Assembly (NCBI GenBank): GCA_013076295.1
Contig: RQOL01000772.1
Location: 1,364,001-1,428,000 of the forward strand
DNA from: Sanderia malayensis
Lineage: Eukaryota > Cnidaria > Scyphozoa > Semaeostomeae > Pelagiidae
Direction of reading: 5' to 3'
Length of the DNA: 64,000 nucleotides
The notes beneath the pieces are model-generated. The model had not been told where the DNA came from and ran no database searches. It worked only from the letters and a program-made list of their open reading frames with translations. Below are positions 1,295 through 59,670 of the stretch, piece after piece; the stretch's first letter is position 1; the number at the start of each line of letters is the position of its first letter. Both the position numbers and the translations under genes were made by a program.

Positions 1295-4200
1295 TCAACT
1301 GTCATATAATCTTGGACATGTGTTAAAGTCGTTTTTCTCCTTCGCCTCCCAATAGCCTCCTTTATAAACAAAAATGTCTAAATCACAATACTCGTCCTTT
1401 GTTTTCTCGAACCATGTCGGAGAGTAATCCTCGTACACGCGCCCCGCGCGACGCGCCTCCTCAGCCTCGGTCTCACGCTTCCTCCGCCGCGCCCGCTGGC
1501 ATTCCTCTAAGCGGAGCTTTATCTGGTTGGCCTTATCGAAATCGCCGTCCTCCATGGCTCGCTGATCTGGCCGGAGGCGAGAATCAGTTGGAGCCACGTC
1601 TGGTTCTATTTCATTCAATGAACACGTGAACTCCGAGAAATTGTACATCTGGGCGGCCTCGGGCCTGTAAGAAAACAGGGTCGCTACGTATAATTTCCAA
1701 AAACAATAAACCTGTCACTAATAAACGCCCACTCCAAGCAACCCGGGCGACTATTCAGGAAAATCCGGCGTGCCGGGGCTTCTTCGACACTTCACATATA
1801 ACACAAGCCCTTCTCCCACCTATATGGTATTATATCCACCCTTTCATCCATCATCTCTTTCAGCATCATTAAACTTAATTTGAAAATTTAACAAAAAAAA
1901 CTCACTTGAGAGGTTTCTTGGACCAAAGCAGCGTTGGGGGTAGCGTTTGAGGATTCCCACTCTTGCTAATCGGGGTACCTTGGGGCACTTTAGAGCCAGG
2001 CTTCAGCAACGGGTCTCTGTACACGACTTTGGCGCATTCTGCTTTCTGGTCCCAAATTCCAGATATGACGTAACGGGTCACTTTGTGGCTGTCTACCACG
2101 TAGCCAGTAACCTAAGGAAATAACATAACCACAAGTATTACCCCCTGAGCAATGCCAATGCGTATTGTTTATCAATACAAAATAGATATATTGACGGGTG
2201 CTTACCCTTTTGGGCTTCTCCTTTGAAAAGTAACTATATGCATGGTATTTAAGATGGCACTTCTCGCCAGTTGTATGATTAACAATATTCATTTCACCAG
2301 ACTAGAAGAGAACGTAGGAGAGCATGCTAAGACCAATCATAGGAAGGCATGATCAAAGCAAAAAGTAGTATAGTTAAACATTCGTATACAGAACAATTGT
2401 CGGATCCATGATTCGGTCCGTTGTAGAAAGGTCGCTACTGTGTAGAGGTCGCTTTAGCAAAGAGTGGACTAAACTTTAAACGTCTGGGTGTCCACTACAT
2501 AGAAATGGCCATCAGTAGGGGTGTCCACTACATAGAGGTGGCTGTTAGTAGAGGTGTCCACTGTATAGAGGTGGCTGTTAGTAGAGGTGTCCACTGTATA
2601 GAGGTGGCTGTGAGTAGAAGTGTCCACTGTATAGAGGTGGCTGTTAGTATAGGTGTCCACTGTATAGGTGGCTATAAGGTGTACACTACATAGAGGTGGC
2701 TGTTAGTAGATGCGTCCACTGTATAGAGGTGGTTCTTAGTAAAGGATAGAGGTGGCTCTTACTAGAGGTGTCCACTGAATAGTTTAGCTCTGAGCGATTC
2801 TAACACAAAATTCATGTTCATGCTCGAATCACAAAGAGTTCGAATAAAAGAAGCTTGTGTTATAAGTGCGGTTCTCTGGAAACCTTTGCTACATGACTTC
2901 GAATCATATAGAGTCGTGCAGTATTCTGCGCGTTAAGTGGTATAACAGTTGAGTATAATGTTGAATTATGCAATATTCAGCTACCTGATCGATCCATAGT
3001 TTTCCGACAATTATATTATTGACAGTTGTGCAGACTTTCTTCCACGTGTAGTGATTGCCAGAGCGCGTGAATTTACAATGCGCAGTGCCGATTGGATTGA
3101 CAAGAAGGTACTTGCCGCGGAATTTGCTGCTCATCGTGAAATTCTGCCACAGAGTCCAGCCTTTTCCCTCAGCGTGATGGGCAATTGACGGGGGGTGGTG
3201 ACTGACCTAGGATCAGAGGATCAATGATCAATGATAATACATCAATATATAACAATGATCAATGATAATACATCAATATATAACAATGATCAATGATAAT
3301 ACATCAATATATAACAATGATCAATGATAATACATCAATATATAACAATGATCAATGATACAAACTAGTAGATCTACATGCCAACACATGCCAACACAGT
3401 GGTAAAAACCGACGATGGTAAAAATGACACTTGGAAAAGTACGAAAAAAGGCTATCAACCCATGAACTTTTCCTTGTTCTCTCGATCAAACCGCTTTAAT
3501 TATCGTGCAAAAAGAATTTTATTGATATGGTATAAGATTTTCTCCAGAGAAATTATTTGGGTGGGGGTGGGTGGTGCGATACGTTGAAAACTTGCAAAAG
3601 TCGTTCCAGGACTGTTGCCCACTACTCAACATATAACAACCAATAGATTGGGAACCTCCAGATAACAAACTAACAAAAAAAACAGTTGGGTGCACAACTT
3701 ACAGGGTCTTATACGCGGTTACTAACTGCACATAGCATTGACTGGTAAATGAAGCCACAAAAAGGCACACAAGAAACTTTTAACACAGTATTCACCTGCT
3801 CTGCTAGAGATCTCCATCCCAAATCATCAGCTCTGTCCATTTCATACGTCTCTCCGAGTAGCGGGTTAAACGGCTTGCCAGTGCGCACAGCGGTGGACGC
3901 GTAGCATGATATTGAGAACGCTGCTATGTGGCAGATCTGTTCAACAGACGACTCGCAAGCTTCCGCGCGGTCTAAAATATCCGCGTACTCCAGCTCTTCC
4001 GTCAAGCGCTGCGTCATCGAAAGCGGCTCGTTGAAGTTCACCTGTAATCAATCCAATATCTGGTCAATTCACCTTATTCACAATACCATCCCAAACTTGC
4101 AGTATATATATGTATGACTAGCCGGGGGAGCTCGCTACGCTCGCTTTCAGCGCAAACAAAGCTAAAAATTTGATTCATCTCGAGCTTGCTTTGTTTATAT

Positions 4201-7200
4201 CCAAAATTTACTGTTCATCGTCAACCAGATCAGCTCTGATTAACGACATCACAATGCAAAAATGTTTTATAAAATCAAATATGAATTCTTCCCAATCGAT
4301 CCCCGAGCAACGGTAAATGACATTCTTTAATACCGAGCAGGTTAATGAAGTGTACGAAATGCAATACATACTTACCGGCATGGGTATTTTGGTAAGCTCC
4401 TTACCGATGCAATTCTTCATAATGCTCCATAGATTAATGCTAGCATTAGGCCGTACACCGATCTGCGTCCTATACTTCCTTTTAACCAGCTTCTTAACTT
4501 GATCAGGCTTCGCAATGGTTTGCTACAAAACAAAAAAAATCAGTGTGCACACAAATCAGTTAGCAAAGAGATACTTCAGGTAATAAAGACTACAGGCTTC
4601 TATGTGCGTCCATAGTAAAACCATTACCAAAAAAACCATAACTGAAATTCATTGTTAGCCGCGCTGTTTAGTTTTATATCGTGTATATATGTTGTTGGTT
4701 GTGTTAATTTGAAGCTGGCCATTGGCAGTAAGAGTTAGCTAAGAGTTCAAAGTCTTGGTCACATTCAAACAAACTAAACGTCACAAAACATATTCGATAA
4801 CTTTGAAATGTTTTGGTCATGTAATATCAAACTCGTGTGGAAAAACGTGCGAAGAAATTTTAAGCAATAAACAAAATATCAGGCGACAATTCAAAAAGCA
4901 AACATCTCCAAGATCAAGAATGATCGTAAAACAAACATCACAAACAAGTACCTTGTGTTCTGGGACCAAATTGTGGTTCATCCTATAAGCCATAGTCCCA
5001 TCAAGGCGAAGAGGACAGTACTCAGCTATATCCATGACTAACCAACAAGAATAGACAAGCGAAAAGGACCAACATGTATTTCTCACAACTCACTCGCCTC
5101 AACAAGACACGAATGAATGCACAACAACAACAACCAAATGTGTACTGTGAAGGTGGCCATGGGTATAATGCGGAATGCGGAATAGAATCACAAAACACAC
5201 ATCACGTCAAGCGACACACGTGTGATGAAAATCACGCAAATGTCTGCAACCGTATATATTTGATCTACTAAATAGCAACGCTATTTCCTCGCTGGTACCC
5301 ACACCAGCATGTTGATTCCAATTCATTCCTCATTCCATGTCACCACATCCCATTCCGCCTTTTACAGATAGCGTAGTATCAAGATTTCGAATCAACTCGA
5401 AACGAACTTCTTTCATTCCATTTCTGTACCACAGAAATATTTGTAAGCAAGAAATATCAAAAACATCTGCCCATGTATCATAACACATTCATTCACACTA
5501 TACTCACATGCAGTCGATATGTCAATGCAGCAATCAATTAATCAGAAATTCAATGTACACATCGTGATAAAAAGATCTCGTTAGCCAGCATCAATCTCTA
5601 TTGTTGCATCACATTGCATTAAATCAGATGTCCTCGCACAATGGCTTGCCAGTGAGAGCTCATCAACTCCAATTTAATCAACTCCGTATGACCAAAACTA
5701 GAGGCTGTACATAGAATGCTGTGGGCGATGTGTATAGCCCTATCACCTTAATAAGCAATTTCAAATCCAGCTCATATCTCTCACACAATAACGATCATCT
5801 TATTAAAAAGCTCACCTTATCAAGAAGCGCTGTCAACGCTAATGAAGCCTCGCGCATGACAATCATATACCTCCCTCCTTTATCACAAATTCGTACAAAT
5901 CTATCAGTGAACAACGATTGTATACAACTCACCGAGAATTGCCCTTGCAAATCGTAGGACACTGCTCTTCTGTGTCCCATCTCCGCTTGGTCCAACGTTC
6001 CCAGCTGTCTCTCAGACACCGATCGCTTAATCAACAATCCCTGCTCCTCCTCCGCACGACCCAAGTTCTCCGGCTCCGCAGCAAACGCCATAATTGACGA
6101 CGTGGACGATATGGCGTCACTGATCGATTCATCGTTGTCGGAATATTGGTCATTCCCGGACACGACAGAGGGGGACTTCATGCCGAACGCCTCGGGATGT
6201 TCGGACATTGCGTCGAAAAACTCGTCGTGATCCTCGTCTTCTTCATCTTCCTGTGAGATCGTCCCCCCGGGACTGCGACACATCTGTTGATTGTTGTTGG
6301 GATGTGCACCGCTGGGCAATGCGATTGTCGACATGCTTCTCATATCAACGGTCTTGCATTTCATCTCGAGTTTGTTGTGCTGTTTGGCCAGTGTCTCCAC
6401 TGTCTCTTCCAATCGCTGTCTGCGCTGTCGTTCGAAGAGCAGCAGTTTCTGGAACTTCTTCTCGTACGCATGCGCAAGGCTCAGGAAATCGTCGCACGCC
6501 TGCGGATTGAAACGAAGCATGTAAAAAATAAAAATACATTTCGCACCCACTCTCTTTCAACCGCTCCCTCCAATAAACGCCCACCCTAAAATCAAAAACT
6601 GTGAACTAATTCTTATACTTTCACTGTTTTGTTCAAATAATTTTGCAAAATATTTTTCTAATTTTGCAAATTATTTAATAAGCCCCCGGGCGCTTATTAG
6701 AGGAAATACGGTACGTAACGGGATATGCAGTACAGCAACTGCGTATAAGAGTCTGTAAGATGTATATCCAGCCTATTGTTCGAATACAATAACCTATTGT
6801 TTCTTTTATTGTTATAAGTATGAATATCATCCCAGAACATTTAAATCTCTTGGTTCTCATATGCGGCTGCTTACTGCATTTGTCAGAGAAAGGTGATTGA
6901 AAGGCAAATAAATTGACTCCGAATAACAAGACCTTTGACTGAGGTCCTTGAGTCCTCAATGCCACAATGAATCAACTTCACAAGCTATTCAAAAGCACAC
7001 AACGACACAAGCTATTCAAAAGCACACCACGACATTAAGAGTAGAAATAAGGTAATAGTGAATAGGGTGACTGCTAAATAAAACAGAGTTGCTTCAAGAC
7101 TCACATTGATCATTGCATTGGATGTGATTCTAAACAACTGCGTCTTCTCGTTGATGCTTTTCAGTTTGCTATTCATCTCCTGTGCATCTCTGCTGTTAAT

Positions 7201-10200
7201 CGAGCAATCAACAGCTTCATTCGACGCACGTGTCTGCTCTTTGTCGAGCAGGTCTCCGAGAGACCTTTGCAACGAGGCACCGTGATTGTTAACGAGGCTA
7301 TTGCACGTTGTCAGGTCCTCAAGCTTGCTTGACAACGACTTGGCAGTCAGGTCGTCCCCAGTCTCCTCTTCGCTGTCGCTGTCATCATTAGCTGTGAAGC
7401 GAATAAATGACGTCATAAGCAAATGAATGCGATAGACAAAAGACTATTCAAGGTGGGGTCCAATTATGACGAGGATTGAAGATCTTACTGCAATCATAGC
7501 CATGCAATGAAGATGACTATCTACGGCTAGGAAGATGACTGTCAGCTGCTAGCAAGATGGCTATCTACTGCTAGGAAGATGGCTATCTGCTGCTAGCAAG
7601 ATGACTATCAACTGCTAGCAAGATGACTATCTACGGCTAGCAAGATGACTATCTACTGCTAGCAAGATCATTATCTACTGCTAGCAAGATCACTATCTAG
7701 TGCTAGCAAGATGACTATCTAGTGCTAGCAAGATGATTGTCTGCGGCTCAACATGATTATCTGCGGCTAGAAAGATGACTATCTATGGCTAGAAAGATGA
7801 CTATCTGTCTTTAAACCTCGAGGTTTCCTTCCAGAACTTCTGCACACCAAGAAACATCACCCAGCTAAATCGATTTATAATTTTGCCTTCGATACAGCAA
7901 ACCTCTGTATACTTACTAACACTTTCTCGTTGTAAAACTTTCAACACAAGTCGCTGAAACACTTGGCTAGCCACAGACAGGCGTCGTTCCAGCTTCAATA
8001 ACGGCATAGCTTGATTACAAGACACTAAACCCTTTTGTACATGATTGCAATGGACGCAAGGCCAAAATTTGCTTTTGTAAACAAATTCATTATTGGCACG
8101 TCTCACCGTGTTGTATATCATTCATTATTATGCAAACATAGACAGGTTATTGGGAATAAGAAAGATCCGTGCAGGTCACCAAACTTTCGCTTGTTGAATT
8201 TACAGGTATGCATTCATGATTGCACGTGAACCAGATGGCAGGGAAAAGGAAGGGGTTGTGGGCAGAAAAACAGGTGGGAGAGCATCCCTGCGGTTGGGCG
8301 CATGTAGATTCAAGGGAAACAAACTAAACGGCTACGATGGTGGATCGGAAACGTTTGATAAGTCTTGTTCTAAGCTAAGGTGGGGGATTCCAGCTCCTAC
8401 GCAGTAGCGTAGGGGGTCAACTGCCGTTTTGTCGGAAAATTGCTGATCTTGTCGGAAAATAAATTTCTTCTGTTTACGTTCAGTTATAGTTTCCTTATCT
8501 TATATTAATAGCTTTAAAGAAACAAAAATGCTTATTAACTTTTGTCGGAAAATCTGAATTTCCTATCTACGCCATTGCTCCTACGTCATTACCTGCAAGT
8601 GTTCTATACTACAACTAGCAAAAGGCGGCGGACACGCGAAGTAATCGGTTCTGATTAAGATTGATTACGTTCCCGTAAGATCACCCTCCGTCGGAGACGC
8701 AAAATAATAAAATTTTATTTGGAATCATTCAAATCCTCGTACTTCCATCCATTCCCCGACCATATGGTCCATAGAATCCCAGAGCCGTCTATCAATGAAA
8801 ACAGAGGATCCCTAATAGATCAATAAATACAAACTGCAAGCTACCTGATTCAAGCATTTTGATGGCCTTGCTTTTAGCCAGCTCGAGTGCAGTTACCCAT
8901 CGCTGTCTCTCGATTTCTGATCCGGCCCTGAGATGATACACCTGACTGCCCGCATTGGATATGACAAAGCTACTTGCGTCTATCGTATCAATGAATGCAC
9001 CGGCCAGGTTTATCGTTCCTCTGCAAGTGTGATTCATCTCCACGGGATTCCTTGAATAAAGCAAGCAGCAATTTAACAATATCTGACAGTAGAATGTTGA
9101 CATAAAACAATCTATTATCATATGACATAAAACAATCTCTAATGGTTACATAAGACAATCCATAATCATGACATGTGATCAGAGCGGATGGGTCCATGGA
9201 AAAAGACATCCTTTTGGGGGATGTTCCAGGAGTAAGAAGACGAGGAAGACCTGGAACTAGATGGATTGATACCGTTGACAAGACGGTCAATTTGACAACA
9301 GGAAATATGGAAAAAGCATGTAGAGATCGAAGTAAATGGAGAGGAATTGTATACAGCGGTCACCAGGGGACGACATCGACCTGATGAACTGTTTGTTTTT
9401 TGTTAAGAATGTAGCGAAATGTCTTTATCAGCAAAGACTGTGCTGATACTATGGTGGACAGAGCAAATTTAATTAATACGAATAACGAGCAAAGGACGCT
9501 GATTGGCTCATATTCGAGGTTTTCTCGCTATTGGGATAATCAGAAAACAAAGTAATGATCACCATGGCGTAAAACTCCGTGATGTTCTTTGTGCGTTATT
9601 CTTATCACTACACCATCCTCATATGAAACTACCGGAATGCTTCGATTAAACGCCCCCTTCTTTTAAACCCCCTCCCCTCGAATAAAGCCCCCCTATTTCG
9701 AAGCATTATGGTATCTATAAATATGATATTTGAACTCCTTAAAAGTAGAATTTAATTTACCCTCTCAGATTTGACTCCCCATATGCAAAAAGCACTGGTT
9801 TACTTCTGTTCAAGTCATGTTGGACTCAAATTCGATAATCATGTATGCATTTCACAATAAGGTTAAAAACAGCGTTGTTTACTCCGCAAAAATAAATTCA
9901 AATACCAAAACATATCTGCTGCATTCACAAGCAGACTCAAGCTTACCCATCATCGGGTTTTTAACTCTATGGAAGTTCACTGGAAAAGGCAAGAATTGGT
10001 GGTGGACACTTGGAGGGTAAGGGAGTGTGGTTGCCCCCTTACTCTACAAGACAATGGTATTTCGCTCTGAAACAATGGACAAATGTGATGTCATCTTGTC
10101 AAAACAATAGGTTTGCCCCCTCCAAATATTAGTTTCATACACAGTGGATACAGAAAAATTATTGTCAGATGCATTGGATTAAGGTTAGGGTTATACATGC

Positions 10201-34043: not shown

Positions 34044-37000
34044 TCAGATTCTCACCGGCCCGCTGCCACTGCGCGCCGCTTTGGGGTCGCGTTGTTCGTT
34101 TTTGTACGCGTCACCGTTGCGAGACGAGAAGCTGCCTGTGCTGCTGGACAGTGAGATGCTACTGCGGTTGCTCGGACCGCGTGTCTGTTCGTTGCCATTG
34201 CCGCGCGCCACGTTGGCCTGGGCGTCGAATTCCGCCAGTTCTTGCATATGTCGACCTTGGAGGTCTTTCAGTCGTTCCTGGCGGATGTCCTGAAGTCGTG
34301 TGCTCTCCTCGTACATCTGAATGAGAAAAAAATCTTCAAATATTCAGTTTTCAATGAAAACGCCTCTCTCAATAATAATATACGCCCTGACTGGGATAAA
34401 CGCCTTTATTACTCAACAATTTATTGAAATTAACCCCCGGACTCGCATGAGCACCTGCTAGCGGCTTTGTGAAATAGAAAATACCCCGAAAAACAATGCT
34501 GATTGCAAGCAAAATACAAACGCACAACTGTGGCACAACACAACAAGACTTACCCTCTCTTCCAACAATGCTCTTCTTCGTGTTACTCGAGCCTGCAAGT
34601 CTTCCAGTTCTTTCTCAATGTGCTTCTTAAGCAGTGCTGTCTGTCTCTCTTGGTACTTCGTCAAGAGGTCTTGTTCTTGTTGTAGCTTTGAAGGCAATGC
34701 TTCTTGCTCTTGTATCTGGGCCTCATCAAGTCGAACCTGAGACAAGAAACCACAAACATAAAAGAGGCCCTTCGAGCTATAACCAATACAAGCTATAAGC
34801 TGTGGAACCCAAGAGGCTGGGGCTGTGAGCTATGCTAACTACAAAAGCTACTGGCTATGGAGGAACTTCAAGCTAAGGGTATTACGACCATCACGTGATT
34901 AACAAGGATCAACCTTATCAAACGAACAAGCCACAATCCTCAAGCAATAAAGTTATAAGCAACAGGGCCTTCAAGCTGCACGATTTTGCCAATACGGCCA
35001 TTGAAGTATGGATCTAAATACAAGATATTCTAGACTAGAATAACTGGAGGATATTGGATCTAACAGCTGTAAGCTATAACCTCATGCTATATGTATCAGT
35101 AAGAAACACACCTTTTGCTTCCTGAGTAGCTCTGATACACTAGCATCGTATTGAGAAGCCAAATCGGCCATCTTTCTAATCCTGTCCTCTTTGAATTTCC
35201 TGATTATTTCCCGATGCTTCTCGCGTGGCGCCTGCAATAGCTTCTGCTTTTGCAGGATCTTGTACTGTTGGTTTTGGATCTTGAGCGTATCGTGGAATTG
35301 CTTTCGAACTTGAATTTCTTGCGCCTGAAAATCACGGCGTAGGAAGGCATAAACACAAGGACACAATAGATCAAAGAAATGAAGTACAACTGTCCCTCTC
35401 AGCATACAAAAATGCATTTAAGCTACAGTCTTGGATCTAAGGGCAAACAAACTATATGTTTTCGGAAGATTACGTTGATTCTAAACCCACCCTCGCCTAG
35501 TATATGATTTGAAACCAAAGTAATTCAAAAATATACTGCAAATACTTGGGTAAACGGTTCGATATTACATCTTAACCAGTGCATTACATTTTGATCTTCA
35601 CAAGAGAGGGGAAGGTCGTCATAAGGAAGTGCTTACCAAAATATTCGTAATAATACAATTATATAGAGTTTATGGGCCAACATGCTGTAGGATCGAACAA
35701 AATGATCTACACACTGTCGGCTAGACGGTGTAGGGCAAATGAACAACTGATACAAGAAAGATAAACCCTATATAGATGCTAACAGTGGTAACTGGGAGTG
35801 GGTTGAAAAGCAATGGCGCTTCACTGACCTTGAGTGTTTTTGGTCTTTGCCTTAGTTCCACCAAGTGTTTCTTTTGCAGTTCCATTTCTGCTTTTTTGTT
35901 GTATTCCATCTGATTGGCCCACTCCGTCTGGTGCTGATACTGTTGCTGGTCCCACCGTAGCTTCTGCATTCCACGTATCTGCTTGTACTCGAGATCCTGG
36001 GTGCACTCGTGATGACGCAACAGCATGGTGTGCGCCTGGTCCTTCTGTGCCTGCAGTGTGTTCATCTCCTGAAAGCAAAGGGCAATGCAATTCAATAAAC
36101 ACCTCTCCCACATGTGACAAGGGAATATAGTATGCAGCAAAGAAATAGAGTATACAGGATAGAAAAAGGTATGCAGCAAAGGCAGCAAAAGAATAGAGAA
36201 TACAGCAAAGGAAAAAAGTATGCAGCAAAGGCAGCGAAGGAATATAGAATGCAGCAAAGGCAGCAAAGGAATGCAGTATACAGCAAAGGCAGCAAAAAAA
36301 TACAGTATACAGCAAAGGCAGCAAAGGAATACAGTATACAGCAAAGACAGCAAAAAAATACAGTATACAGCAAAGGCAGCAAAGGAATACAGTATACAGC
36401 AAAGACAGCAAAAAAATACAGTATACAGCAAAGGCAGCAAAGGAATACAGTATACAGCAAAGACAGCAAAAAAATACAGTATACAGCAAAGGCAGCAAAG
36501 GAATACAGTATACAGCAAAGACAGCAAAAAAATACAGTATACAGCAAAGGCAGCAAAGGAATACAGTATACAGCAAAGACAGCAAAAAAATACAGTATAC
36601 AGCAAAGGCAGCAAAGGAATACAGTATACAGCAAAGACAGCAAAAAAATACAGTATACAGCAAAGGCAGCAAAGGAATACAGTATACAGCAAAGACAGCA
36701 AAAAAATACAGTATACAGCAAAGGCAGCAAAGGAATACAGTATACAGCAAAGGCAGCAAAGGAATACAGTATACAGCAAAGGCAGCAAAGGAATACAGTA
36801 TACAGCAAATGCAGCAAAGGAATACAGTATACAGCAAAGACAGCAAAAAAATACAGTATACAGCAAAGGCAGCAAAGGAATACAGTATACAGCAAAGGCA
36901 GCAAAAAATACAGTATACAGCAAAGGCAGCAAAGAAATACAGTATACAGCAAAGGCAGCAAAGGAATACAGTATACAGCAAATGCAGCAAAGGAATACAG

Positions 37001-40000
37001 TATACAGCAAATGCAGCAAAGGAATACAGTATACAGCAAAGGCAGCAAAGGAATACAGTATACAGCAAAGGCAGCAAAGAAATACAGTATACAGCAAAGG
37101 CAGCAAAGGAATACAGTATACAGCAAAGGCAGCAAAGGAATACAGTATACAGCAAATGCAGCAAAGGAATACAGTATACAGCAAAGGCAGCAAAAAATAC
37201 AGTATACAGCAAAGGCAGCAAAGGAATATAGAATACAGCAAAGGGATACAGCATACAGGAAATAAAATCAGCATGCAGCAAGATGAAAACAAAAATAATA
37301 CCTCTATCAATAATGATTTCTCTAGCGACTGCCTCTGGCTTAACTGATCTCGCCTGAATGTGCGCAGTTTTAATTCAAATGTCTCTCTTTGCCTCCTTGC
37401 TTTATCGTTCTCTTTCTGTTTCTGAAGACGACCAAACTGATCCTTCAAATCGCGTCGTCTTTCAGAAGAATCAGCTGAATCCTACAAAACATGATTTCAA
37501 AATGAATTGCGCAAAGCCCGCATATTATTCAATCATGTGTCAGACATAAATATTCCCATACATAATGATAATACTAATTTTGGCAGACACCGTTGGATAG
37601 TGCTCAATACATATATATGTAGAGCGGTGTATAGAATTAAGTGATACTCAGTAAAAAAGACGCATTATAACAGCGAATAATGCTTATTTTTTACTGAGTA
37701 TCACTTATTCCCATACATATGCATGTAGAAGTAAGTCCTTTGACTATTCAGTAATTACATTGCTCAGTGCACAACGGTAACAAGCAGATGCAGACATAAA
37801 ACAGACTGTTGTTTACCCTTTTCAGTTGTTGTTTTGCATTTTTATATTCATTTTTGAGAGCAACGCCAACTTGTTTCATCTCGGCCTCTTGTTCTTGTAT
37901 AACTGTTTTAGTTAATTTCTTCTCATCTGCGATACCTTGCTTTACCTTAAACGCAAACAAGTGTTGAATTATGAGCATCAGTGTGAAGTACTTTATTTAT
38001 TAGCCGCCCACTGGCTTTTATTGCAGATTCAACTATCCAGCTGCATGCTGGATGATGTCTCAAACTTACAGTTTAAGACACGGCTCTCAGATTTGATTCT
38101 TGTACAGCGACGCTTACCGCTAACATATCAAAACATATTATTAGAGCTCTTATCAGAGAAATAGTTCACACAAATCCATCTTGATTCTAATAAGAAAGCT
38201 AAACATTAAGCAGAGAACTAGATGTCTAAGGGCCAACTAATCACATGACTCGATCATTTGCCCCTCTTAGTTGGACAATCTAGTGTTTTCCCTCTTATAT
38301 GGATGGACAATTTAGTTGTCGCTAAATTGTTCGACAAAACATTGCTTTACTTGTTTCATCTCTCAGTGACATCTTTTTACAAGCAAATAACATCTGTAAG
38401 ACTCAACTGAAGAGAGTAATTAAGTTCAAAAATAGAGAAAGCACGTCATGATACCTTTTGCTCCAAGTCAGCTCGGTGTCTATTCTTAAGTTTCTCCATC
38501 TCTTTATCAAACGCGTGCATTTGCGTTTCAAATTCTCGTTCAAGCGATCGCCTGTGTTCGCCCATTTCCGTTTGCTGTTTCGACTCGAGGTTCAGTATCT
38601 GTTTCTGGTGTTGTTGACGCAATCGTTTGTATCCCTGTAGCTGTTCTCTGTACGCGTCCGTCTGCTGGTGTTCTTGCTGTTGCCTGACAACAACGTTGGC
38701 TGGTCGAATCGTGGCGAAACGGTCCTCGGGCAACTCGTTCGCGGTGGCTGCGGCCTGTGAAAGTGCAAAAAAGAGCCTTGGTCATGGGCTATACGTATAG
38801 CTGGATATCGTATCATAATCAACACTACAAAGCTGCAAACAAATACATTCACAGGTTACAAAGTACTACAAAACCCTAGCAAAAAACTGCAAACTTTATC
38901 AAGCCATGCAATGTTTCCATAAGCACATCCAAGCTTCACCAAACTCTATGAAGCTCCACCAAGCTCTATAAAACTCCACCAAGCTCTATGAAGCTCCACC
39001 AAACTCTATGAAGCTCCACCAAGCTCTATAAAACTCCACCAAGCTCTATGAAGCTCCACCAAGCTCTATGAAGCCCCACCAAGCTCTATAAAACTCCACC
39101 AAGCTCCATGAAGCTCCACCAAACTCTATGAAGCTCCACCAAGCTCTATAAAGCTCCACCAAACTCTATGAAGCTCCACCAAGCTCTATAAAACTCCACC
39201 AAGCTCTATGAAGCTCCACCAAGCTCTATAAAACTCCACCAAGCTCTATAAAACTCCACCAAACTCTATGAAACTCCACCAAGCTCTATAAAACTCCACC
39301 AAGCTCTATGAAGCTCCACCAAACTCTATAAAACTCCACCAAGCTCTATGAAACTCCACCAAGCTCTATAAAACTCCACCAAGCTCTATAAAACTCCACC
39401 AAGCTCTATAAAGCTCCACCAAGCTCTATGAAGCTCCACCAAGCTCTATGAAGCTCCACCAAGCTCTATGAAACTCCACCAAGTTCTACAAAGCTCCACC
39501 AAGCTCTATAAAACTCCACCAAGCTCTATAAAGCTCTACCAAGCTCTATAAAGCTCTACCGAGCTCTATCAAGCTCTACAAATGCTTTAATATCAAGCAA
39601 GCTCTCACAAGCTCAACCAAGCAAAATCCATGTCCTACCTTGGTTAACGAAAAGGAAATAGGACTTTCCGATCTGCGTTCACTATCTTGTACCGCACTGG
39701 GTATATCTTCGGTACTGCTGCTCGGACTGCTGGGTGTGCTGTCCTGTTCACTCATGCTGCTTGTCTTGCTATTCACGCTCAATTTCTTCATCTGATCGAC
39801 CTCCTAGAAGACAACGACGATATCCCAATGGTGGTGTAGAAAGATGGGTATGAGTAAAGAGGTGCATAGCTGTATAATGACATGAAATGGTAATGTTATG
39901 GTAACAATGGTGGAAATGGTAATAGAGTTGAACCTCGCTAAGTCAACTACCGCTTAAGTAGAACTCCCCCGATCTCGATCATTTTTGTATTTCCCTTGGT

Positions 40001-52381: not shown

Positions 52382-55300
52382 TGACGTGATCGATTTGGTT
52401 GTTTACATCCAAGTCTTAGTTTTTCGTAATCTTTTTTTAAATCGAATTGCTGGACGTTCGTGTAGTTTTAGTTTGACAGCGTTCACTAATTTAAGTTTTG
52501 ATAACACTATGCGTTTAGTTATAATTATAAAGCGACTTCAATACTTTGCAACTATTTTGGTTTGCTTTGCGGCATTGAACTGCGTGAACACTGGAATGGC
52601 GACTCTTATACATTGCAAAATGGTCCTGACTCAAATGTAAGCCATTGTATACTGTATACCGCTCAGCCTGTTCTCCCCAGCTCTTGCACGTTCAAAAAGT
52701 ACGGGATTTTAGCTCACCACAAAGCATTTACATTTATTTCATGTACACGTTGCATCACGGCTTGTTGCAAGTATACGTGTAAAGTTTAGAACACGCATTT
52801 TCAATGCCAGAAACAAACAGAACCACCACTCCTGTGTTTATTTATAGTCCAATGGGCTGCATGAACTCGTTTTAGAAATATGCTTTTCACAATACTGTAA
52901 ATCAACATACATTTTACTAACATCTTTCTGATACTTTGCTGCAATTCTTATGTAAGATAGCTACTATTTATATACGTGAATTTGTGCACCCTATGGTGAG
53001 TAAAGCGTTTTATATTGTTAATTGTCAGGCACCGATTTTAAGTGATGTTTTCTAAGATTGACCATGTTGTGTATATCTTTGTGTGTGTTATTTTTGTTCA
53101 ACACTGCATAGATTGTGGTGCATTCTCGCAGCAGTGACCAAACACAATTAGCATTGTACTAACAGCGATTATCAAAGACGATATTGTTATTAGCGATATT
53201 TGCCGGTCTGGATACAGGCGCTGCTCTCTCCGTCTCGTCGTCTACTTTCAAATCATCCTTTGTGCATCGCTGTTCTATTGGGGAATCGGTATTTTTATCG
53301 GAAAGGTGATCTTTTTGTCGGCGTTTAGATTTACTTGTCAAACGTCTACCGTTGCAGACGTTCAGAGCCGCATCATACCCCGCTGGATTGCTAATTTCAA
53401 CAAAAGGCCTGGGCACTAAGCTGTTGCATGACGTCATCTTGCTCTTGCTAAAATTATACAGTTGAATTTCGACACGAGTTCATCAAATCTTTACAGTTAT
53501 AAGACAATGTTCTATAGCAGTAGCAGGGTTGATTAAAGCTAGGAGGTTTAATTAAAATATGCAATGGAAAGGAATCAAATATTATACTTTCGTAGAATAC
53601 TTCGGAATTCTTACTGATTGGTAATCATCAGCTTCCAAACCATTTCTTTATTCATGTGGCTGGCCTCACGATATTTATTAAACGATGACACATAGAAATA
53701 TGTTTGCTGGCTTCATTAATTATTAACAACCTGACTGGTCTCGATTCAATTTCAACGCAAATTGTGATTCAATTTTCGTTTGATTTTGATGACCTGTTCG
53801 CTTCTATCACTGCTGCTGTGGTCGTCATTAGATATACGTAATGTTTTGATAGCTGGATACTCCATTTGCACAGATTTTACCGTTCATATACACGGTTTGG
53901 CGATGATGTAATTTTCTTCTTTTCCAACAATTCCTCACGCAAACAAAACGCAAACTAAGACATGCTATTACTTGCCGGATATTTGTGGAACTGACACATA
54001 TTGCTCTAATTTTATCTTTTACTTTTTCGAATTGTGAAATACTAGAATTAGAACTGATTAAATTTCAAATAATAATCATTCAAATAATAGCTCTTGGAAT
54101 AACTCAGAAATTCGATATTATTATTGCAATCCTGTGTTGTTTTTATTAAAAACCGTGTGGGTTAGAAAGTATGTGAACACATGAAATTGTCGCCAAAGCA
54201 ATGTATATTTCACCCTCAGAATGAGCTCTAAAAGATAAGCTGGTCAAACTCTGGACTGCGTAAAATGCTAATTCAGCTGGAGGCTGTCTTACATATTTGT
54301 GTAATTTTCAAAGAAGACGATGAGAGTATATAGCTAAGACTCTGTTAATTATACGCTTGTGTGGCGCTATTTTATTGCGTGCGAGCCATGAATTTTCGAA
54401 TTTGCGCTGCTCAGCTGTTAGGGTTTGAAAAATTTTGCAACAAAGCTGCAATTGACTGCCCAGAAAAGACAGATAAAATGTCTTTTGAATGCATTTTCTC
54501 CAGACGGTGAGAAATAAGCAGAACTTATAAATAAATTTATTGTATGCTCATTGGAAGGAGACGTTATAATTCCACCTCGCCGGTAGCCTTGTTTATTCAT
54601 GTCGTTTAGACTTAGGGCACTGCATGAATTGCCAACTGTCTCCGCTGAAAAACAAAAGAGGATTTGTCTTTGATTATCATGGCAGGCATGCTCGTGTATT
54701 TGAGCAAAGCTATGGGATGAGCCAATTATTAAAAACACAAGTCTAACAATTCTAACAACATTTTAATTTCTCAAGGCCTTGACTTTTGAGTTGCAAAAAA
54801 TGAAAACGAGACTGGTGGCGGGAAAAGTCTTTTGTGTTTTGCTTCGAGCTTGAGTTAATATTATTTTTAACAGCTTCTTAAAAGATTTCTTTCTTTCTTG
54901 AAATTAGAACTTTTTACAAAGAAAGGTTAATCATTATTTTGCATGTTCTGTGACCCTTTATCTGATTCAGAGTAATTATATCTCACCCTCAATAATAAGC
55001 AAAAATGTTTTTGGACAAAAAAGGTGTTTGGTTAGCAGTCGTGCTATCTAGATAGTGGAATTTCATTTTTCACCTTGAAGACGGTAAGTGAAATTTCTGC
55101 AAATTATTTTTCTTGTTAATTACTGCAAATAGCTTTTGAAATATCAATTAACTCCAGCAAATTTGTTTTTGTTTTTTGGGAAGGTTCTTTAAAAACTCAA
55201 GCTCTTGTCCAGACATGCCCTCTTTCGACAACGTTTTTCGTAAACAAGTGTTTCAAACTTTGAGTATATCATGGCATTTAAGTATGCAAGGTTATGCAAT

Positions 55301-57568
55301 AACTTCTTGTATTTTTCGTCCTTAGACTTATCCGAATTTAAATATCTTTAATTGTGATGAAAACGGGTCATTCATGAACATTATTTGCTATATTATTTAA
55401 TTTCTATGAGACACGAACGTGAGCGGGGTATCCCCAAGATCTTTGAAAAGTGTCTTTGTTTGAGATTCAATAAAAAGATCTCAAACAATGCAAGCCCATT
55501 TGTAACCATTAAGACACCAACCTCTCCAGAGGCATGCGTAATCACAGTTTTGTTTATCCAACAGTGTATTAATGCATCATTTTCGGGCGTGGCAAACTCA
55601 ATAATCTTGCTCCAAAGTAAACAAGATCAGGCTTAATAAAAATTAATGATATGTTTGACTTTATCTTCAACAATAGTATATTTTAAGCGACTTGTCAAAG
55701 TGTTCAGGAATGAGTTAATCAACTGCACTTTTTTATAAAGAACCTTTCTCATGGCCTGGTTCCTCAAGTGTCTTGTTTTTCGTTCTCCTTTGATTGAAAA
55801 AAAGTACCAAAAATTCCATCATATGTACAGTTCCTTTACTTAAGTGCACATTGATTGCCCTAAAATTAGCACAGGCGTTAGAAAAGCATTTTTTGTAGAC
55901 TAAGTATTTGATAGATGCATAACACACAATTTATGCGAGTTTTTAACTTCAATTGAATTGAACCGGTTTCATAATTTGCAATTATTTGCAGTGATAAGAA
56001 AGAAATAGTCAAAATTGAAAAATGTGCCTGTTAGCCATTGACAAGAATGATCCAATATGACTTCCCTATGCTATTTTTCGAGAGTTTTGATTAGCAAAAC
56101 AATATCAGAAAATTAAAGAGTTTGCAAGAAACATGCCATGACACGCATAAGTACTTAATTGTTTTACAAATGCGAACGGCCATTGTGTTTTCAATTTTAC
56201 AAGAATACAATGCAGGAATGGGCACTCCGCATACTGAACATGAAATATGTATTCATGGAAACATGACTAATCATTATCCCGATTCGAACATTGTTGTTTG
56301 TTTTGAATTTTCCACATCACATTCTTGCTCACTTCTCGTTCTCCTGGCTTAATTAGCTTTTGTGTTGTTTACGAAGCAAACGGGTTATTGAAGTAGTGAG
56401 CGATAATGTACGTTATTTTTTATAAAAACGTTTTTTTGTCAGAGCACTACTGAAACATTTTTTTAAATTCTCCAATTTCAGTCCCCAAAATTTTTCGAGG
56501 CATTCTCGGCAGCCATTGAAATGTTTCACGTTACTTACAACGCAATGTTATGATTTGAATAGCATTCTTGACACAATCTGTTGATGTACTATATTCTGTA
56601 TCATACATAGTCACAAAATCATTAAATATTTTGTTCTTGCACGGCACTTTCTCCTTGAAATTTGGAGTATATTTGAATTGTTTAACTTTCTAAGTTTCAA
56701 AAACTCGGTACTGAAAGGGTACTGAACTAACTTGCTTCACTCTTTGACGAGCCGAATATTAAGCGGTAATAAATCCTGAGAGAAACAATGGGACTTATTG
56801 TATCGACTTAAAATTGAATCTTCCCCTCTGCCGCCTTCAAGTAAATACGGCGCGAAGGGGCGAGCAGTTTTTGCTTTCCCGCCACACTACATCAGATAAG
56901 AAATATTGCCACAAAGGGTTGAACAATAGACTGTCTTCCTGAATCTATGATTGATAGCTTTGTAAATTTTAGTATTTTTCCATGAGCAGGAAAGGGGCGG
57001 AAAATTCGGCTGCTTTTCGCATCATTACATCACATACAATTTCATATTTGGTTCGCGTAGAGATTATAATTTCAGGCAACATATGCTGAAATGGGCCTGC
57101 AGCACATTAGTATCACAGAATATGTAAACAAGCGATAAAGAACTCTTTTCTGAATATATACGTACATTCAAGAAATCTTTCTTCCTGGGGATCTTTGAGT
57201 TATTGCTTTTTAAGGGTGGAGAAAGGGTACTAAATTCGCACTATCGCGTATGTTATGATAAACAAACTGTTTTCCAGAGAATCGCGTGATGGCAAATTAA
57301 TTTCCTTTGGCGTATTCTTTATATTGTTGTATGAGTAATATGATTAACAAACGAATACAGAAGAGGAAGACTATGGACTGACTTTTATTTTTGCATTGAA
57401 TATTTCATGCGGAGAAATGAGCGCATAACATTGCCATGGCGGTCATGCAATGTCCAGCCTTTACGTAATTCCCAACAACAATATCCTCCCCTTCTGCTGG
57501 AACTCAAACAAACACATACACCAAAGGAACCAACCAATCAGATCACGACACTCTTGTGTTCTCAAACG
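52382..57568. other. About 5 kb gene-poor stretch
   Basis: AT-rich DNA between the EGF-module gene and the BH3 gene promoter. It holds the 3' UTR of the former, one minus-strand open frame listed separately (53159-53437), and otherwise only short chance frames. No tandem array, RNA gene or recognisable transposon was seen. It may carry regulatory DNA, but I can point to no specific site. Confidence 0.5.
53159..53437 (-). CDS. Hypothetical 92-residue hydrophilic protein
   Basis: Single uninterrupted frame starting at an ATG and unusually rich in charged and polar residues for this AT-rich region: VPRPFVEISNPAGYDAALNV, a basic TSKSKRRQKDH patch, then an acidic KDDLKVDDETER patch. It lacks the Phe/Ile/Tyr bias of nearby chance frames, so it may be coding or the exon of a larger gene. 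No homology recognised. A minus-strand AATAAA-like signal is at about 52843. Could be noise. Confidence 0.3.
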   Translation of the reverse strand: MTSCNSLVPRPFVEISNPAGYDAALNVCNGRRLTSKSKRRQKDHLSDKNTDSPIEQRCTKDDLKVDDETERAAPVSRPANIANNNIVFDNRC

Positions 57569-57660
57569 TGATTGGCTTTTGACCAAAAGTAATTTAGCAC
57601 ACGATTTCACTCATGTGTTTTTGGCGGCATATAAATCCCAGTGTTTGAGCGATTTCAGTT
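57534..57660 (+). promoter_or_regulatory. TATA/Inr core promoter of the BH3 gene
   Basis: TATAAA at 57630-57635 is followed 27 bp later by an initiator-like TCAGTT (57656-57661; A at 57657). Upstream lie CCAATCA at 57534-57540 and an inverted CCAAT box TGATTGGC at 57569-57576. The spacing of TATA and Inr is textbook. This is the most complete core promoter visible in the window. Confidence 0.65.
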
Positions 57661-57735
57661 GTCATTCATCAGTTGCTGTAACAAGAACTGTATATCGCTA
57701 TCGTCAATTTCAATCTGCCACTTGAAAATACAGAA

Positions 57736-57936
57736 TTGATGATAATAGCAGTACTTTTTGGCTATAATAAAGACGTTAGTTGGCTTGTATTCTGGTTGAA
57801 GTTGATTATTCTTCGGTATTTCAAATCAATTTGTCATCTTGTGCGATCAGAGAGAGGAAATTGCGAAGTAACTGTTCCTTTGAAGAGAAGTTCCTGTGTA
57901 ATCACACCACAGAAAGCCAAACTAAACCAGAATTAA
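57736..57936 (+). other. Upstream open reading frame in the BH3 gene leader
   Basis: A 66-codon frame (begins MMIIAVLFGYNKD) lies wholly inside the predicted 5' leader and stops at 57934-57936, six nucleotides before the main ATG at 57943. If the leader is unspliced, ribosomes would have to leak past it or reinitiate. The peptide itself shows no recognisable domain. Confidence 0.45.
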
Positions 57937-57942
57937 TTAATC

Positions 57943-58221
57943 ATGGGACAAGAATATAATTCATCAAGTGTAGATGTCATTGGACAGCAAGCGGTAGCGA
58001 ATGATAACAAACAACATCGTTATGCCGCGACCTATGAGAGGAGAAATTTGGGGAAGATATTGGCTCGAGATTTGAGGAATATTGGAGACGAAATCAACAC
58101 GGAATACGGTGTTCAACATTTTGTAAACGAAGTGCTTGACAAAATCGAAGTTCGTAGAGTTTTGTGGTTTGTGATAACGGGTTTGCAAGGTGCTGCTTTG
58201 GCTAAAGGACTTCTGAATTGA
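57943..58221 (+). CDS. BH3-only Bcl-2-family protein (candidate)
   Basis: Intronless gene for 92 residues. Residues 40-51, LARDLRNIGDEI, fit the BH3 consensus at every key position: hydrophobics L40, L44, I47 and I51, small G48, invariant D49. The core IGDE is the same as in vertebrate Bim. The flanking sequence (EINTEYG against Bim EFNAYY) also fits. A hydrophobic C-terminal stretch (VLWFVITGLQGAALAKGLL, about 73-91) preceded by RR resembles a mitochondrial tail anchor, though it is weakly hydrophobic near the end. No BH1 or BH2 motif is present. Size and layout are like Harakiri/Bim-short. BH3-only proteins trigger apoptosis by binding Bcl-2-like or Bax/Bak proteins at mitochondria. They have been described in Hydra, so occurrence in a cnidarian is plausible. 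The N terminus MGQEYNSSS could be N-myristoylated (speculative). Confidence 0.75.
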   Translation: MGQEYNSSSVDVIGQQAVANDNKQHRYAATYERRNLGKILARDLRNIGDEINTEYGVQHFVNEVLDKIEVRRVLWFVITGLQGAALAKGLLN

Positions 58222-59454
58222 TTGAATTTCACCACTCAATCAGATCTGGATAAATGGATGCATGAATGTGAAAACGCTGGAAAAATGTAAACAAAACTTG
58301 TACTTTTTGAAGTATCTACTGATGCTGTGCATATCGCAATGTGTTTGTGTTTGAAGTGCGATTTTTAAAAGGTCGCCCTAAATATCATTAGTATAAATAT
58401 ATCAAAATATTATCTCAATTGTTTACTGGGTAATTCAATACAAGCCTTATCAAATATGACCGCTCAAAATTGCATGGATTTTCAAAATATAACCAGCATC
58501 AACAATCGTTCCGCGCGAGCTTGGAAATATAATGAAAGAATGACCGACAGATAGCGGTGAATTTTGAAGAGGGATTTTTATCATCAAAGTCTTTGCCTTC
58601 TTCAGTAAAATGCCGTAAGTTTAAGTTCTTCAATTCTTATGTCATTGCAGGCTTTGGTTTTCAATTTCTTATGATTATCACTGATAGGCCCACCACCAAT
58701 TTGCAAAAATAAAAATCCAAGGCTGTGATTCTTTGGCTTCTTAGCAGAAAATTACTCTCTGATATTTTGTTTTCATTTTCGTTTGTTATTCTTTGTTAGT
58801 AAAACCAAAAGCTAATTTATAAGGGTTTAGCAACAAAGCGTGATAATTGAAATACAAATATACAAAGCGTTATCAAATTACATTGAAATTAGTCAAACTT
58901 TTATATTTAAGTTTATTTAATTTATATTTTGTTGACAACTCGGTTAAAGTCGAAAATTTCAAGTAACTGTAAGCTATTTGATATTTAACTAATTACCATT
59001 GACAGGAAAATTTACCAAAGTAAACAGCTTTCTGGTTGATAAACGTATTATTTAAATGTTTTGTTTTGTATATTTGCAGTATATTGTTACTGCAAAGCAT
59101 GGTTTATGTAGAAAATTTATTGACTCATTTTCGAGGAAATATACACCATATATGTAAGTGGTTGTTCTAGACCAACGTTCACTTTATTGAAAAATCAATT
59201 TAAATTATTAAACATCTCGAAAAATTGATGCTTTATGAGAATATTGTGATAGATTTATGACGTGTGAAGAATTCTTAATTGTAATAAATAATAAATAATG
59301 TTATTGTAAATGAAAGTTTTTGTGTTTGAAATATGGTCGACTTTCTTGCTTGATTCTAAAGGAAAAGTCGTCAAATTGACATGGGTGCTTTGTTTACTGG
59401 TTTCAAAAGCATTTGCAAGATTATGTCTCAGATACCTAATTTCCAAATGAATAG

Positions 59455-59670
59455 ATGGCTACTGATAACAACGTGGACGTGGAGGGTTGCGAAGACGAAG
59501 GGAAAATCCCTCGTTTAACCCATTACATCATCCATCGGTCCCAGACGCGAGTGGATTGTTTAATGTGGCTCAACATTTTTTCTCTCCAAATAGGCTTTAA
59601 TCAAATCGGATTTCCGTCCGTTTTCCGCTTGTTAAAAGAAACGACAAATGATCCTTCTAAAAATCTTTAA
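59455..59670 (+). CDS. Hypothetical short frame, possibly an exon
   Basis: 71-codon frame from an ATG preceded by AATAG (a possible acceptor). The first half is acidic then basic (NNVDVEGCEDEGKIPRLTHY, then HRSQTRVDCLMWLN) with base composition richer in G and C than its surroundings, which suggests coding. No homology recognised and no partner exon found. Confidence 0.25.
   Translation: MATDNNVDVEGCEDEGKIPRLTHYIIHRSQTRVDCLMWLNIFSLQIGFNQIGFPSVFRLLKETTNDPSKNL

What the first reader, a model, noticed from the sequence alone, without database searches (positions are those of the whole stretch)
57943..58221. Intronless 92-residue BH3-only protein with a near-ideal BH3 core
Seen: LARDLRNIGDEI places hydrophobic, Gly, Asp and hydrophobic residues exactly on the BH3 consensus, and the protein ends in a hydrophobic segment after RR. 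Known: the L-x3-L-x2-(I/M)-G-D-E pattern with a tail anchor defines Bim/Hrk-type initiators; cnidarian BH3-only proteins are known from Hydra but few are characterised. Inference: a pro-apoptotic initiator, perhaps undescribed in this species. A single-exon gene under a strong TATA/Inr promoter suggests stimulus-induced expression.
Basis: partly seen in the sequence, partly recalled or inferred. Interest (0 to 1): 0.8.

Follow-up and report, generated by a model that had tools for sequence, protein, structure and literature searches.

The report
Likely unannotated jellyfish BH3-only death gene
A small intronless jellyfish reading frame carries an almost textbook copy of the short helix that animal cell-death initiator proteins use, so it is probably a real but so far unlisted member of a known kind; nothing has yet shown that it is expressed or kills cells.

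Summary
Window 57943-58221 (+) is an ATG-to-TGA frame of 92 aa with LARDLRNIGDEI at residues 40-51, matching all five BH3 hotspots. It is the best BH3-like 12-mer of 66,913 in the window; 1 of 9.05 million shuffled 12-mers scores as high. Its one Pfam match is the Bim BH3 family, below cut-off. With the 31-aa core, 11 of 12 PDB hits are Bim BH3 and one a foldamer, none significant.

One contig's length equals the published scaffold N50 of Sanderia malayensis: a true jellyfish, not an anthozoan. The genome also encodes likely partners: Bcl-2-like, Bak-like and Bax-like proteins and caspases.

Best reading: an apparently unannotated, single-copy BH3-only protein that neutralises pro-survival Bcl-2 proteins by BH3-in-groove binding. 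Weak points: no homologue found, in a database that holds this species' Bcl-2; synonymous codon use gives no support; tail anchor borderline.

[quoted passage not shown] New member of a known kind. Side finding: many near-identical Bcl-2-like frames on repeated elements in this genome.

The parts
57943..58221 (+). 92-aa single-exon open reading frame (P0001), candidate BH3-only protein
   Evidence: coding score +9.9 bits, 5th of 126 ATG frames of 50 aa or more (10th per codon), other five frames of the stretch -10.7 to -30.9; single copy in the genome
58060..58095 (+). BH3 core LARDLRNIGDEI, residues 40-51
58159..58203 (+). hydrophobic segment VLWFVITGLQGAALA (residues 73-87) after RR71-72, possible tail anchor
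   Evidence: best 15-mer mean 1.77, 19-mer 1.57; helix 70-91 in the single-sequence model
57630..57636 (+). TATA-like TATAAAT
57655..57660 (+). initiator-like TCAGTT, A at 57657, 27 nt after the first T of the TATA
   Evidence: such pairs occur 5 times in the window, 1.36 by shuffling
57534..57538 (+). CCAAT box-like
57571..57575 (+). ATTGG (CCAAT on the other strand)
57739..57936 (+). upstream ORF of 65 aa, in frame with the main ORF and ending 6 nt before its ATG; weak start context
   Evidence: weakness of the context judged by recalled Kozak rules
58708..58713 (+). first AATAAA after the stop codon, candidate poly(A) signal

Best explanation
A real, apparently unannotated, single-exon gene of the scyphozoan Sanderia malayensis that encodes a 92-aa BH3-only protein. 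Inferred mechanism: once made, the protein sits on the mitochondrial outer membrane by its C-terminal hydrophobic helix and puts its BH3 helix (residues about 36-55) into the groove of pro-survival Bcl-2-like proteins such as P0002. L40, L44, I47 and I51 fill the four pockets and D49 meets the BH1 arginine. This frees Bak- and Bax-like effectors to open the membrane. Shown here: the frame, the motif and its rarity, single copy, and the presence of the partner families in the genome. Inferred: expression, location, binding, killing.
For: BH3 core among the best by a matrix from 30 validated human BH3s: only 5 of their 30 leave-one-out scores are higher (BIM, PUMA, BIK, BAX, HRK). The one Pfam family reported up to E 10 is Bclx_interact, E 0.051. 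PDB: full protein, mouse Bim BH3 first, E 0.86; core, 12 hits, 11 named Bim and one a foldamer, E 0.19 to 1.4. No Bcl-2 fold match, hence BH3-only. Coding score 5th of 126 frames; the three best are training exons. Start context ATC-ATG-G and promoter-like letters. Partners: P0002 (147 of 147 residues identical to the L002 exon up to a splice donor, so taken as this species' own) is closest to 'Bcl-2-like 4' 6wgz, E 1.4e-56 (the Hydra protein, recalled); L003 is Bak-like (18 best hits all Bak); L004 is Bax-like (12 best all Bax); 20 caspase-domain matches. Core against P0002: shuffle p 0.0045.
Against: No candidate homologue in a search limited to close relatives, although the database holds this species' Bcl-2 and at least one other named cnidarian. 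The synonymous-codon part of the coding score is -3.1 bits, rank 71 of 126; per codon the frame ranks 10th; three frames score within 0.3 bits of it. No sequence match is significant alone, and the Bim-family search of the genome did not list this place. By chance about 21 twelve-mers this good are expected per genome in any frame, 0.04 to 0.3 in an ATG frame with such a tail (resting on one chance event). Tail hydropathy borderline. BLASTP pairs residues 44-51 with P0002 80-87, E 2.1, not with its BH3.
Confidence: 0.72

Rival explanations
1. A chance open reading frame: non-coding DNA in which a BH3-like word arose by luck.
For: No homologue and no protein of this species found in the database; neutral synonymous codon use; 94 ATG frames of 60 aa or more in the window, 9 of them, this one included, with a tail this hydrophobic; looser BH3 pattern 1 against 0.68 expected in all stop-free stretches.
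Against: Motif score reached by 1 of 9.05 million shuffled 12-mers; frames with motif and tail expected at 1e-5 to 1e-4 per window; coding score far above the other five frames of the stretch, whose stops count -3 each.
Confidence: 0.17
2. A real short protein with a BH3-like helix but another job, for example in autophagy, trafficking or mitochondrial shape, as for several BH3-bearing proteins outside the Bcl-2 family.
For: PMC9171138 lists validated BH3 motifs in proteins with other jobs and says alignments of validated BH3s have little to no predictive value.
Against: Only 92 aa, no other Pfam domain, and the core is of the high-scoring classical type.
Confidence: 0.08
3. A remnant or derivative of a multidomain Bcl-2 gene that kept BH3 and tail and lost the groove.
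For: The core resembles the BH3 of P0002 (p 0.0045) and of two other cnidarian-like Bcl-2 proteins (P0005 p 0.048, P0017 p 0.001); the tail resembles P0002's last 26 residues (FVITGLQGAAL against FVISTLAGLGL, p 0.049).
Against: Tail similarity is marginal and fades against the whole protein (p 0.16); BLASTP sees no significant match; single-exon locus with no second copy.
Confidence: 0.03

Closest known systems
Hydra HyBH3-only 1-4 and other cnidarian BH3-only candidates (Hydra, Clytia, Acropora, Nematostella)
   Same: BH3 as only Bcl-2 motif; genes without introns (PMC8998228: abstract, passages and Figure 5 legend; section 2.4; PMC10192318 table passage)
   Different: Another class, Scyphozoa; sequences could not be compared: figures are not held, and the Hydra structure paper asked for is not held
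Bim (BCL2L11) BH3
   Same: Best match in Pfam and PDB; L/I-x3-L-x2-I-G-D-E-hydrophobic
   Different: No match outside about 25 residues; below the Pfam cut-off
Hrk and Bik
   Same: Core of the same type (TAARLKALGDEL, LALRLACIGDEM; PMC9171138 Table 1); small size and a C-terminal anchor are recalled
   Different: No match to either reported in the Pfam or PDB searches

Membership tests
BH3-only proteins (functional class) | Four hydrophobic hotspots and an acidic residue in BH3 register | tested here: met
   L40, L44, I47, D49, I51; matrix score 19.84
BH3-only proteins (functional class) | No other BH motif, no Bcl-2 fold domain | tested here: met
   PF00452 not matched; only PF08945, weakly
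BH3-only proteins (functional class) | BH3 binds the groove of Bcl-2 proteins | not testable with these tools
   Complex prediction and binding assays not available
BH3-only proteins (functional class) | Promotes apoptosis when expressed | not testable with these tools
   Needs an experiment
BH3-only proteins (functional class) | C-terminal membrane anchor (many, not all members) | tested here: inconclusive
   RR + 15 hydrophobic residues, 19-mer mean 1.57
BH3-only proteins (functional class) | Largely disordered outside the BH3 | tested here: inconclusive
   Single-sequence model gives helices 10-51, 54-67, 70-91 at mean pLDDT 70.7, pTM 0.30; no disorder predictor run
Cnidarian BH3-only genes | No introns | tested here: inconclusive
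   Coding frame is one exon; UTR structure not known
Bim family, PF08945 | Score over the curated cut-off of 25 bits | tested here: not met
   13.9 bits; so not filed as a Bim orthologue
Hrk (Harakiri) | Homology outside the BH3 | tested here: inconclusive
   No Pfam family other than PF08945 reported; filters drop most weak matches, and no Hrk sequence was compared directly

The most novel reading that the evidence does not exclude
An unlisted scyphozoan BH3-only initiator, held down by an upstream ORF until stress, that works in a genome full of element-borne Bcl-2-like proteins. Those would act as decoys for its BH3, so that the gene is one side of an arms race over cell death between host and mobile elements.
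Probability: 0.07. Interest if true: 0.7.

Novelty: new member of a known kind. Interest (0 to 1): 0.36.

Why it matters
BH3-only proteins are hard to find because little beyond a dozen residues is conserved, and the coral study PMC4715348 calls characterising their repertoire of particular importance but challenging (passage). A jellyfish candidate of under 100 aa, apparently missing from the gene set, shows where such genes may hide and gives a direct test of whether Bim-like initiation is shared across Cnidaria. It does not change what is known of the mechanism.

Tried and rejected
Bim orthology: rejected, score under cut-off. Paralogues in the same genome: none found; second copies of the locus: none found. 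The one PF08945 match in the genome (C836, 16.2 bits, E 2.56) is a 65-aa frame that resembles only the first half of the Bim BH3 and lacks G-D-E (L032). Close relatives in viral contigs: 21 stretches matched a pattern, none confirmed. 'NIGDEIN' in papers: 0. Shared descent with P0002 by tail: marginal (tail tried against all 36 proteins, lowest p 0.04). p53 half-sites within 55001-59500: one exact, at 55211, 2.4 kb upstream of the TATA. Antisense frame 57964-58239: the three antisense frames score -23.1 to -30.9, so not taken as coding. The fold of the model was not searched: confidence too low. Other Pfam BH3-only families were not searched in the genome. 'Adintovirus' with 'Bcl' gave 0 papers, 'Bcl-2' with 'Polinton' 3.

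Full report
What is there. Window 57943-58221 (+) is an ATG-TGA frame of 92 aa. In the own-genome search it lies in C726 of a 184,004,477-base assembly in 918 contigs. Contig C479 has 4,676,287 bases, which is exactly the scaffold N50 given for Sanderia malayensis in PMC7305137 (passages and table lines seen). That paper gives 184,371,355 bases in 970 scaffolds, so a little of it may not be held here. The window is therefore taken to be from that scyphozoan, not from an anthozoan. The locus is single copy: protein 1 match, 1,301 bases of DNA 1 match.

Is the motif more than chance. Residues 40-51, LARDLRNIGDEI, satisfy the four hydrophobic and one acidic hotspot described in PMC9171138 (passages; section 5 parts 1 and 2 of 3; section 8). 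A strict pattern: 1 in the window, 0 in 100 resampled windows. A looser one: 1 against 0.04 in ATG frames of 50 aa or more, but 1 against 0.68 in all stop-free stretches. A matrix from 30 of the 35 validated human motifs gives 19.84; of the 30 leave-one-out scores only 5 are higher (BIM, PUMA, BIK, BAX, HRK). The next 12-mer in the window, of 66,913, has 13.6; 1 of 9,052,532 shuffled 12-mers in 150 windows reaches 19.84. Adding an ATG frame of 60 aa or more and an equally hydrophobic tail, the chance expectation is 1e-5 to 1e-4 per window and 0.04 to 0.3 per genome; in any frame and without a tail it is about 21 per genome. These rest on one chance event and are rough. So the motif in this window does not look like chance, but a genome-wide hunt by motif alone would give false hits.

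Is it a gene. For: coding score +9.9 bits from 1,365 training codons (nine Bcl-2 exons and five window exons, four of these with Pfam matches). It is 5th of 126 ATG frames; the three best are themselves training exons, so it is 2nd of those not trained on. The other frames of the same stretch score -10.7 to -30.9, stops counting -3 each. The main start reads ATC-ATG-G; TATA at 57630, initiator-like A at 57657, CCAAT and ATTGG at 57534 and 57571, AATAAA at 58708. Against: the synonymous part of the score is -3.1 bits, rank 71 of 126, so the signal comes from amino-acid composition; per codon it ranks 10th, and the next three frames score 9.85, 9.75 and 9.63. TATA-initiator pairs occur five times in the window, and another AATAAA lies at 57766 in the presumed 5' UTR. 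The protein database gave no candidate sharing three 5-residue words. It does hold a protein, P0002, identical to the L002 exon over 147 residues up to a splice donor, so this species is represented and the frame is apparently missing from the set held there. Whether that set keeps proteins under 100 aa is not known; gene finders often drop them (recalled). An upstream ORF of 65 aa (57739-57936) with a poor start context lies in frame and ends 6 bases before the ATG; it would have to be spliced out, scanned past, or used for control.

What it resembles. Pfam: one family reported up to E 10, Bclx_interact (Bim BH3), E 0.051, 13.9 bits, cut-off 25. PDB: whole protein, mouse Bim BH3 first with E 0.86, then two unrelated proteins; the 31-aa core, 12 matches at E 0.19 to 1.4, 11 named Bim and one an alpha-beta foldamer. 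None is significant alone; that searches of two libraries point to one motif is the evidence. The unaligned AlphaFold model has helices 10-51, 54-67 and 70-91, mean pLDDT 70.7, pTM 0.30: it allows a BH3 helix and a C-terminal helix, no more.

Partners. PF00452 gives 45 matches in the genome, 38 over the cut-off; nine are strong (59-100 bits, L002-L010; 0 of 14 control genomes). P0002 is closest to 'Bcl-2-like 4' 6wgz, E 1.4e-56 (Hydra, recalled); L003 to Bak; L004 to Bax. Caspase domain: 20 matches, counted by exon. The families that a BH3-only protein would act through are therefore encoded. The core resembles the BH3 of P0002 (p 0.0045), the tail its anchor only marginally (p 0.049); BLASTP does not support homology.

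Known or new. PMC8998228 (abstract, passages and Figure 5 legend; section 2.4; [quoted passage not shown] PMC4715348 (passages) leaves the coral BH3-only repertoire to be characterised. PMC10192318 (passages) lists HyBH3-only 1-4. Searches for BH3-only with jellyfish (9 papers, all listed) and for any two of BH3-only and scyphozoan names (555 papers, 10 listed, none of the ten holding 'BH3-only') showed no title or abstract start that describes a scyphozoan BH3-only protein; most of these papers were not opened. So: a probable new member of a known kind. Stimulus-induced expression is unsupported.

Noticed in passing
Own genome, loci L011-L031 (e.g. L015:1399-1842 +, L012:1405-1863 +): 36 weaker PF00452 matches (27-46 bits) besides nine strong ones. 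Of the 21 fetched, 20 lie in one open frame and one (L027) has stops inside; frames are 91-156 aa stop to stop, many with NWGR. They fall into five groups; in the comparisons printed for five of them the longest pieces shared within a group are 395-3,252 bases at 87.6-99.9% identity, often with neighbouring frames. L015's is a Bcl-2 family protein by Pfam, 42.2 bits, best PDB match BCL2-like 10, E 7.7e-8; no homologue in the protein database at E 0.001. It looks like a multi-gene mobile or virus-like element with a Bcl-2 homologue; no replication gene was found or searched with success. A BCL2-like motif in planarian Burro elements is in print (PMC6431247 passage).
   Followed up: partly
L015:3-311 (-): Helicase C-terminal fragment (UvrD_C_2, E 2.8e-6) beside the Bcl-2-bearing repeat; resembles Helitron helicases (recalled).
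   Followed up: no
L002 and L003 (C686:2.72-2.73 Mb): A Bcl-2-like-4-like and a Bak-like gene lie about 8 kb apart on the same strand.
   Followed up: no
window 35721-37448: Long repetitive stretch (repeated LLYTVFLCCLCC-type frames, open on both strands) in a region that recalls a TAO-kinase coiled coil (recalled); a neighbouring frame gave no Pfam match. The repeat tools were not run.
   Followed up: no
window 1295-9121 (-): Exons of an oxysterol-binding protein and a PH domain.
   Followed up: partly
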